From positions 1 to 32,780 of the forward strand of contig CASEPS010000021.1 of the NCBI GenBank assembly GCA_949289855.1: DNA of 32,780 bases, read 5' to 3'. Shown here piece by piece: positions 27,717 to 29,651 of this stretch (positions within the stretch are counted from its first letter, which is position 1; every line of letters begins with the position of its first letter). The DNA comes from an uncultured Erysipelotrichaceae bacterium. Lineage in GTDB: Bacteria > Bacillota_I > Bacilli_A > Erysipelotrichales > Erysipelotrichaceae. The notes below the pieces were generated by a model that searched no databases, had not been told where the DNA came from, and was given only the letters and a program-made list of their open reading frames with translations. A program made the position numbers and the translations under genes.

Positions 27717-27745
27717 AAGGCGTGCAATAACTGCACGCCTTTTTT
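27717..27745. terminator. Shared terminator between ileS and the convergent gene
   Basis: AGGCGTGCA (27718-27726) pairs with TGCACGCCT (27732-27740) around ATAAC, followed by T residues to 27745 on the plus strand. The minus-strand gene ends at 27745, so the stem sits just beyond the ends of both genes. It is a clear terminator for ileS; for the minus strand the T-run is poor. Confidence 0.88.
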
Positions 27746-28278
27746 CAGCTCATGTGCCTGACCATTTGTTCATCGGTTTGCACTTCTCTGATAGTGATGT
27801 TCATCGCTGCGAAGTGATCCGCATCAAAGTGTGGACGATTCAATTCAACTTTCATCAGATGCTGATCTGGATAGATAACCCTTGTACATGAGATTCCTGG
27901 AGGAAAAGCTGATTCGTCTTCAATGATTGCAACAATGACCAGTTCGTGGTCTTTGACTCTTTCCGCATCAAAGTACTCCACAAGATCATTCATCTTGTTG
28001 TAGGCATCCTTTTCTTCCTGCCAGAGGATGCGTACATTGTAAAGCGTTCCGTCCATATCCCTGGCGACAGCTTTCATGCGAATTGAATATCCATAGAGCA
28101 TGGTTTTATCCTGCGGGATGGAGTGCGACAAGAGGGTGACGTTTGGCCTGCAAATGAAGTACCGCACTAATTCCTGCCCCCAATGGGGATCATCTAATAC
28201 GATTTGCAAAAGCTGTTTGTGCTCTTCCGGAAAACCATTGATTCTTTTGTTTTTAGATTTTGAATAACTGATTGTCAT
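27745..28278 (-). CDS. Rpn/PD-(D/E)XK-like protein with degenerate active site
   Basis: This 177-residue protein resembles the Rpn family (recombination-promoting nuclease, also called PD-(D/E)XK family transposase). Segments with the family layout include GYSIRMKAVARDMDGTLYNV (about 63-82), then DLVEYFDAERV and ELVIVAIIEDESAFPPG. In active members the first of these carries a metal-binding Asp (as in RLDV) and an E-x-Q pair. Here the Asp position is Lys (RMKAV) and the Glu position appears to be Arg (RILWQ), so nuclease activity is doubtful. The start has a strong ribosome site, AAGGAGA. The assignment rests on pattern resemblance and is moderate. It is convergent with ileS and downstream of the RNA ligase remnant. 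Confidence 0.62.
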   Translation of the reverse strand: MTISYSKSKNKRINGFPEEHKQLLQIVLDDPHWGQELVRYFICRPNVTLLSHSIPQDKTMLYGYSIRMKAVARDMDGTLYNVRILWQEEKDAYNKMNDLVEYFDAERVKDHELVIVAIIEDESAFPPGISCTRVIYPDQHLMKVELNRPHFDADHFAAMNITIREVQTDEQMVRHMS

Positions 28279-28358
28279 TTTCAGTATCTCCTTTCACTTG
28301 TATATGTACGCAGCAAAAGGCGATTCCCTCAAAAAAAGTGAAAATTGATACTTTGTTT

Positions 28359-28930
28359 TCAGATGTTGGATGACAAATCACCATTTTCTGACAATTTCTG
28401 ACGCCAGTTGATACCAAAGTCTTTGCTTTTGATTTTGCATTGTGGCATACCATCTTTCCAGAATACAAGACCTTCAATTGCATGGTCTTCAAGATAGGCA
28501 CGTATGCCTTCAAAGGAACGTTCCACTTCGACTATATCCTGTCCATGTGGTATCAGAATATCCTTTTGAAGATGGTATGGATTAGCCTGGAAATGAGGAC
28601 CGATTGCCTCATATGTGCCATCTGACCGATAGCTGCAATGATCGTATGTTGCAAATAACCACTTGTCCTGCGACTTATTGCGATCACACTGTAGCCAGCA
28701 GGGAAGATGACCAGTCACTGGATCACATGTTTCTTCACAAGGAATTGCGCCTTCTGGTATTGGTTTTCCGTGCTTTGCATCATATCGTTTGTAAAAAAAC
28801 CATCAATGATAGCACAACATGCCCCATCTCATTTGATGGTCGCAATGCCTTCTCCATTCATCACCCATTCTATGCCAGGAATGGGTTTATGTGCGATAAT
28901 ACTACCGATGAATACATTGGAAATATACAT
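28359..28930 (-). pseudogene. RNA ligase (RLIG1/DUF5565-like), broken by a stop codon and a frameshift
   Basis: Read on the minus strand from ATG 28930, the frame gives PGIEWVMNGEGIATIK, then TGA (28829-28831), then DGACCAIIDG. This is the nucleotidyltransferase motif K-x-D-G with catalytic Lys33, where the codon after Lys is TGA in place of an aromatic codon. A run of seven A on the plus strand (28793-28799) then breaks the frame by one base. Past it the reading continues YKRYDAKHGKPIPEGAIPC, DPVTGHLPCW, and ends with IEGLVFWKDG and CKIKSKDFG, the ligase motifs IV and V. All parts of a ligase of about 190 residues are therefore present in order. Two independent lesions point to a recent pseudogene. 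The part from 28718 is still open and starts with GTG, but lacks the catalytic lysine. Confidence 0.75.
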
Positions 28931-29651
28931 TGAACGTGCGTTAACGATGCTGGAAAAGTGGTTACCACGAAGCAAAGAAGAACTGCAGAAGCATTATAAA
29001 GAACATCCTGAAGATTGTGATGGGATGTGGAAGGATGATTTTTACTATTGTCTGTTCAGCTGGAAGGAAAAACAAGCAGAGAGAATCATTCTGCTTGTCT
29101 ATGATAACGATATTGTCATAGCAGATTTATCTGCCATGCATTGTCCGATTGATACGTTAATGCATGATGTAACGTTCTATGATGCTATGTCTTTTGAATC
29201 AGACTGGATGTATCTTGAACATTACATTCTTTCTTCACTGCTCTTCCCGAAAAGGGCGTATCCTGATTTTTCTTCACCAATACAGAATTGTGAAGGGGAA
29301 GCACTGCTTTTTTCGAATGCTTATGTTACCCGTACATACCGTAACAGAAAGATTTTTACGAATATGGAAAGTATGACCAGGTCTTTTGCATTGCGTAAGA
29401 CAACTGGTCTATCAAGACTTGCAAGTATCTTTTCATTAGATCCGGATGTTGCCTGTTATGGACCCGATACACAGGATGAACCATATATTTATTGCTATGA
29501 AAAAGATGAACCGGTCAGGGGAATGAATGCAAAGATTGCGGAAAAGATCGGTTATGAACCGTTGAAGCTTGAAGAAACGGAACATCATGAAGAAGATGAT
29601 GGCACAAAGCTATGGTTTGCCGTGCATATGGAAAAAACGATTATTCTTTAG
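28908..29651 (+). CDS. Orphan protein with GNAT-like C-terminal features, function unknown
   Basis: The start is uncertain. ATG 28908 (MNTLEIYIERALTMLEKW) gives 247 residues; ATG 28947 gives 234. Neither has a recognisable ribosome site, and the frame is open further upstream into the antisense of the ligase remnant. The protein is soluble and acidic. The segment VTRTYRNRKIFTNMESM (about residues 143-159) and the late segment NAKIAEKIGYEP look like the cofactor loop and the N-x-x-x-x-x-k-x-G-[FY] element of GNAT acetyltransferases, but this is a weak resemblance. Its last 11 bases overlap the end of the convergent MBL-fold gene. It begins head to head with the RNA ligase pseudogene. Confidence 0.55.
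   Translation: MNTLEIYIERALTMLEKWLPRSKEELQKHYKEHPEDCDGMWKDDFYYCLFSWKEKQAERIILLVYDNDIVIADLSAMHCPIDTLMHDVTFYDAMSFESDWMYLEHYILSSLLFPKRAYPDFSSPIQNCEGEALLFSNAYVTRTYRNRKIFTNMESMTRSFALRKTTGLSRLASIFSLDPDVACYGPDTQDEPYIYCYEKDEPVRGMNAKIAEKIGYEPLKLEETEHHEEDDGTKLWFAVHMEKTIIL

What the first reader, a model, noticed from the sequence alone, without database searches (positions are those of the whole stretch)
28359..28930. RNA ligase gene caught in decay: stop codon right after the catalytic lysine plus a homopolymer frameshift
All motifs of a nucleotidyltransferase-type RNA ligase related to RLIG1/DUF5565 can be read in order on the minus strand, but the codon following catalytic Lys33 in K-x-D-G is TGA and a seven-base homopolymer shifts the frame about ten codons later. 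TGA next to the active lysine is probably a changed TGG. RNA ligases of this kind are linked to RNA repair, and the neighbours (Rpn-like, GNAT-like, EEP-fold) look like accessory cargo. If the lesions are assembly errors, an intact ligase would be present.
Basis: partly seen in the sequence, partly recalled or inferred. Interest (0 to 1): 0.6.

Follow-up and report, generated by a model that had tools for sequence, protein, structure and literature searches.

The report
Decayed phage-type RNA ligase pseudogene
A bacterial chromosome carries the broken remains of an RNA-joining enzyme gene of a kind common in gut and rumen phages and bacteria; it has lost its beginning, gained a stop codon beside the active-site lysine and slipped out of frame, so it is an ordinary dead gene and not a new system.

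Summary
On the minus strand at about 28891-28359 lie all motifs of a KxDG RNA ligase, interrupted by TGA right after the motif I lysine (28831-28829) and by a frameshift at a T7 run (28799-28793). The read-through protein matches the PHROG 'RNA ligase' family (E 2e-46) and is up to 71% identical to intact genes of gut and rumen bacteria. That family's profile matches solved RLIG1 (E 3e-24), and AlphaFold2 gives an RLIG1-like fold for the closest intact relative. TGA is a real stop here. In the nearest relatives the residue is Trp (TGG). Three independent lesions and 30 intact neighbouring genes make real decay far likelier than assembly error, and correcting two base calls would still not give a whole gene. 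No other copy was found in this genome or in 293 genomes of the order, so it was probably gained horizontally. Codon-position constraint still looks normal, so decay is recent. The neighbours are not conserved accessories. Verdict: a recent pseudogene of a known family.

The parts
28359..28891 (-). remnant of an RLIG1/DUF5565-like (phrog_14301) RNA ligase gene; 5' end missing, two further lesions inside
28832..28834 (-). AAA, motif I catalytic lysine of K-x-D-G
   Evidence: role of the homologous Lys57 in PMC11494293
28829..28831 (-). in-frame TGA at the x of KxDG; Trp in all 13 nearest intact relatives
28793..28799 (-). T7 run (A7 on +) at which the reading frame is lost
28359..28718 (-). downstream open frame (119 aa from GTG): motifs III, IIIa, IV and V only, no motif I lysine
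28892..28907 (.). junction: ligase homology ends here against an extended -10-like TGC-GATAAT (GATAAT 28895-28900, + strand) and the start of the native + gene
28908..29651 (+). 247-aa protein of unknown function, native to the genus; its conserved start occupies the place of the ligase's missing 5' end
28288..28344 (-). 5' leader element repeated elsewhere in the genome directly before PD-(D/E)XK/Rpn-type genes; follows the ligase stop by about 15 bases
27745..28278 (-). 177-aa possibly Rpn-type ORF behind that leader; no profile match of its own

Best explanation
A pseudogene. The ancestor was a ~190-aa ATP-dependent 5'-to-3' RNA ligase of the bacterial/phage RLIG1 (DUF5565) kind: it would adenylate its motif I lysine, pass AMP to a 5'-phosphate end and seal it to a 3'-OH, with broken tRNA the likeliest substrate (inferred from the family). 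It was gained horizontally by this one lineage, probably from a phage or mobile element circulating among gut and rumen Clostridia (inferred). It lies between the promoter of a native gene (28892-28908) and an Rpn-type gene with its leader (28344). It lost its first ~25 codons and start signals (or arrived without them), acquired TGA at the Trp codon next to the lysine, and lost the frame at a T run. Nothing left can be translated into a ligase: no single reading has motif I together with motifs III-V. The order of the lesions is unknown; the body of the gene still shows coding constraint, so decay is recent.
For: Family: phrog_14301 E 2e-46; 71% identity to intact L049; family profile to solved RLIG1 9c6l E 2.7e-24; AlphaFold2 model of L049 (pLDDT 90.5) best matches RLIG1 9c6m/9c6l, E 6e-11, TM 0.70. 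Lesions. 5' loss: the N-terminal (M/V)-(K/R)-K-x-x-x-LF motif is in essentially every homolog with a complete 5' end, and K3, L7 and F8 are invariant in 49 aligned relatives; it is absent here, and the space is held by the native + gene, whose start Met is conserved. TGA is a stop: 19 of 30 window genes end in TGA, prfB present, the tRNA-Trp found is CCA and no tRNA-Sec reaches the cut-off. Other window genes intact. No copy in 293 other genomes of the order. Recent decay: 57 of the 58 residues invariant in 18 near relatives are kept where aligned; codon-position differences to L049 are 49/34/107, like those between intact genes.
Against: Conservation of the body is so good that, without the 5' loss, assembly errors or recoding would be live options. 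No reads or sister strain of the same species were available, so the two internal lesions are seen in one assembly only. A phage or mobile source is inferred from where relatives are found, not shown by junctions.
Confidence: 0.92

Rival explanations
1. Assembly or base-calling errors in a draft genome make an intact ligase look broken.
For: Draft of 116 contigs; one lesion is a homopolymer indel, the other a single-base change; coding constraint looks normal.
Against: Needs three errors in one gene of under 600 bases while 30 other genes (30.7 kb, with 15 runs of six equal bases) in the window are open. The missing 5' end is not a base-call error: the native neighbour's promoter and start lie there, intact.
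Confidence: 0.05
2. Recoded functional gene: TGA read through as Trp or Sec, followed by a -1 shift at a slippery T run, gives an active ligase.
For: A -1 shift on the T7 run returns to the family frame.
Against: No start codon with a ribosome site and no N-terminal strand remain. TGA is used as stop in 19 of 30 genes, prfB is present, no suppressor or Sec tRNA was found. None of 170 relatives has a stop codon at that position.
Confidence: 0.01
3. The downstream open frame (119 aa, motifs III-V) is expressed and has some new function.
For: It is open and conserved.
Against: It lacks the adenylated lysine and motif Ia; no such free-standing fragment was seen among the relatives; 119 codons can stay open by chance in a young pseudogene.
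Confidence: 0.02

Closest known systems
PHROG phrog_14301 'RNA ligase' / bacterial and phage DUF5565 proteins (e.g. L049 Eubacteriales MAG, IMG/VR L003, Cellulophaga phage phi10:1 gp057, Mycobacterium phage Paola gp78)
   Same: all motifs, length, order; up to 71% identity over 163 residues
   Different: those are intact; this one lacks the first ~25 codons and carries a stop and a frameshift
RLIG1 / C12orf29 (PF17720), human and Yasminevirus (PDB 9c6l, 9c6m)
   Same: motif set K-x-D-G, R, E, H, E, K; the intact relative's predicted fold matches best; family profile E 2.7e-24
   Different: bacterial/phage type is shorter (about 190 aa against a 324-position Pfam model); this sequence itself scores below the PF17720 cut-off
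T4 RNA ligase 1 (Rnl1) with PrrC-damaged tRNA repair
   Same: same chemistry and likely role for viral members, as suggested by the authors of PMC11494293
   Different: T4 Rnl1 has an extra RNA-binding domain and a partner kinase/phosphatase; no partner is seen here

Membership tests
RLIG1/DUF5565-type RNA ligase (as ancestry) | sequence match to the family profile | tested here: met
   phrog_14301 E 2e-46; PF17720 itself sub-threshold, 15.6 bits versus 25, but 50 of 55 intact relatives match it
RLIG1/DUF5565-type RNA ligase (as ancestry) | nucleotidyltransferase motifs I, Ia, III, IIIa, IV, V in order | tested here: met
   K/D, R, E, H, E, K all present when read through; 57 of 58 invariant residues kept
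RLIG1/DUF5565-type RNA ligase (as ancestry) | RLIG1 fold | tested here: met
   for the closest intact relative L049 only: Foldseek to 9c6m, E 6e-11, TM 0.70; the broken gene itself was not folded
functional RNA ligase gene | one open frame holding all motifs | tested here: not met
   TGA after motif I Lys and frame loss ten codons on
functional RNA ligase gene | N-terminal MKKI..LF strand and start codon | tested here: not met
   in essentially all complete relatives, absent here
functional RNA ligase gene | autoadenylation and RNA sealing in vitro | not testable with these tools
   shown for human, bacterial and viral homologs in PMC11494293
recoded gene (TGA as sense codon) | decoding tRNA or an altered code | tested here: not met
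   19 of 30 genes end in TGA, prfB present, tRNA-Trp CCA, no tRNA-Sec over cut-off

The most novel reading that the evidence does not exclude
A ligase whose synthesis is gated by stop read-through beside the catalytic lysine and a -1 frameshift at a T run, from an unconventional start inside the neighbour's promoter.
Probability: 0.01. Interest if true: 0.7.

Novelty: new member of a known kind. Interest (0 to 1): 0.14.

Why it matters
Little by itself: it records one recent gain and loss of a phage-type RNA ligase in a lineage whose relatives lack it. It fits such ligases being transferable and not kept once the selecting pressure (perhaps tRNA-cutting defences) is gone, which is an inference. 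For annotation it says: call it a pseudogene, do not treat it as an intact enzyme with two sequencing errors.

Tried and rejected
An accessory-cargo system around the ligase: rejected, since Rpn-like, 247-aa, MBL and EEP proteins are beside none of 170 related ligases, and PADLOC finds nothing. Alternative code or selenocysteine: rejected. A second intact copy in the genome: none. The same locus in viral contigs by a DNA pattern with the codon left open: no match; the Rpn-like ORF: no match there. The careful tree did not finish; only the quick tree was used, where the candidate groups with L041 and L049 (support 86).

Full report
What was checked. The finding says that an RNA ligase can be read on the minus strand at 28930-28359 with TGA right after the catalytic lysine and a homopolymer frameshift ten codons on. 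Translation shows exactly that...EWVMNGEGIATIK*DGACCAIIDGFF, then after the T7 run (28799-28793) the homology goes on in another frame, KRYDAKHGKPIPEGAIPCEE...IEGLVFWKDGMPQCKIKSKDFGINW, to a stop at 28359.

It is not chance. The read-through protein, X at the lesions, matches PHROG family phrog_14301 'RNA ligase' over 159 residues at E 2e-46, and the downstream frame alone at E 1.6e-23. In the whole genome the two pieces ring separately at 5.5e-33 and 2.6e-7, and there is no second copy. That is a limit of the model: the closest intact relative L049 also has no Pfam match, yet 50 of 55 intact relatives do match PF17720.

Family. Homologs were collected from phage records, plasmids, viral contigs and bacterial genomes. 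The nearest intact relative, L049 from a Eubacteriales MAG, is 71% identical over 163 residues. A profile of 55 relatives matches solved RLIG1 (9c6l, Yasminevirus) at E 2.7e-24. An AlphaFold2 model of the L049 protein (pLDDT 90.5) finds RLIG1 9c6m/9c6l as best structures, E 6e-11, TM 0.70. In PMC11494293 the homologous lysine (K57) is the adenylated residue, and bacterial and viral homologs joined tRNA halves in vitro. PMC10364804 reports that DUF5565 neighbourhoods are enriched in RNA functions and tRNA genes. So the ancestor was very probably a 5'-to-3' RNA ligase; that tRNA was its substrate is inferred.

Lesions. (1) TGA at the x of KxDG. (2) Frame loss at T7. Here the homology begins only near 28891, at the relatives' residue ~26. 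What lies upstream is the start of a divergent gene: ATG 28908 of the 247-aa ORF, which occurs in 39 of 60 genomes of the genus with a start at the same Met (MNTFERTWL, MNAFERTYL against MNTLEIYIE), often with a -10-like hexamer a few bases before it. The extended -10-like TGC-GATAAT of this gene ends at 28900. The ligase's 5' end, start codon and ribosome site are gone.

Not an artefact, not recoding. Thirty other genes in the window (30.7 kb) are open. TGA ends 19 of them; prfB is present; no tRNA-Sec reaches the cut-off, and the near-misses are ordinary tRNAs, among them a Trp tRNA with anticodon CCA. Reads were not available, so each internal lesion alone could be an error, but the third cannot be explained by a base call.

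Origin and age. phrog_14301 rings in none of 293 other genomes of the order, and the protein in none of the other relatives searched. Related ligases are scattered over phage contigs and gut/rumen Clostridia, with Bacteroidota and Verrucomicrobiota; some lie near an integrase or phage-type phosphatases. A horizontal gain is therefore likely. Of 58 residues invariant in 18 near relatives and alignable here, 57 are kept, and differences to L049 fall 49/34/107 on codon positions 1/2/3, as between intact relatives: the gene was under selection until recently.

Neighbours. None of the Rpn-like, 247-aa, MBL, EEP or ileS proteins is found beside any of the 170 related ligases (one weak metK-like match in L194). 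The Rpn-like ORF (27745-28278) has no profile match, but its 5' leader (28288-28344) recurs at two other places in the genome, each directly before a PD-(D/E)XK/Rpn-type gene (that naming rests on a weak PF12784 match and on sequence pattern). The ligase remnant is thus wedged between that leader and the native + gene.

Verdict.

Noticed in passing
28288-28344 (minus), G000 C64:10879-10928 and C58:349-405 (L217, L218): A ~55-base leader (TTTTTTTGAGGGA...GTACATA.AAGTGAAAGGAG) recurs directly before PD-(D/E)XK/Rpn-type genes in this genome, including the otherwise unrecognisable 177-aa ORF of the window.
   Followed up: partly
L217 582-1470 (minus): The Rpn-type gene at C64 is itself split into two overlapping frames, so Rpn-type genes may decay in this genome too.
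   Followed up: no
28892-28910 (+) and L016, L018, L021, L023, L025: The 247-aa gene and several genus homologs have a -10-like hexamer a few bases before the start codon, as if transcribed without a leader.
   Followed up: no
28908-29651 (+): A genus-wide protein family of about 245-280 aa without any family match.
   Followed up: no
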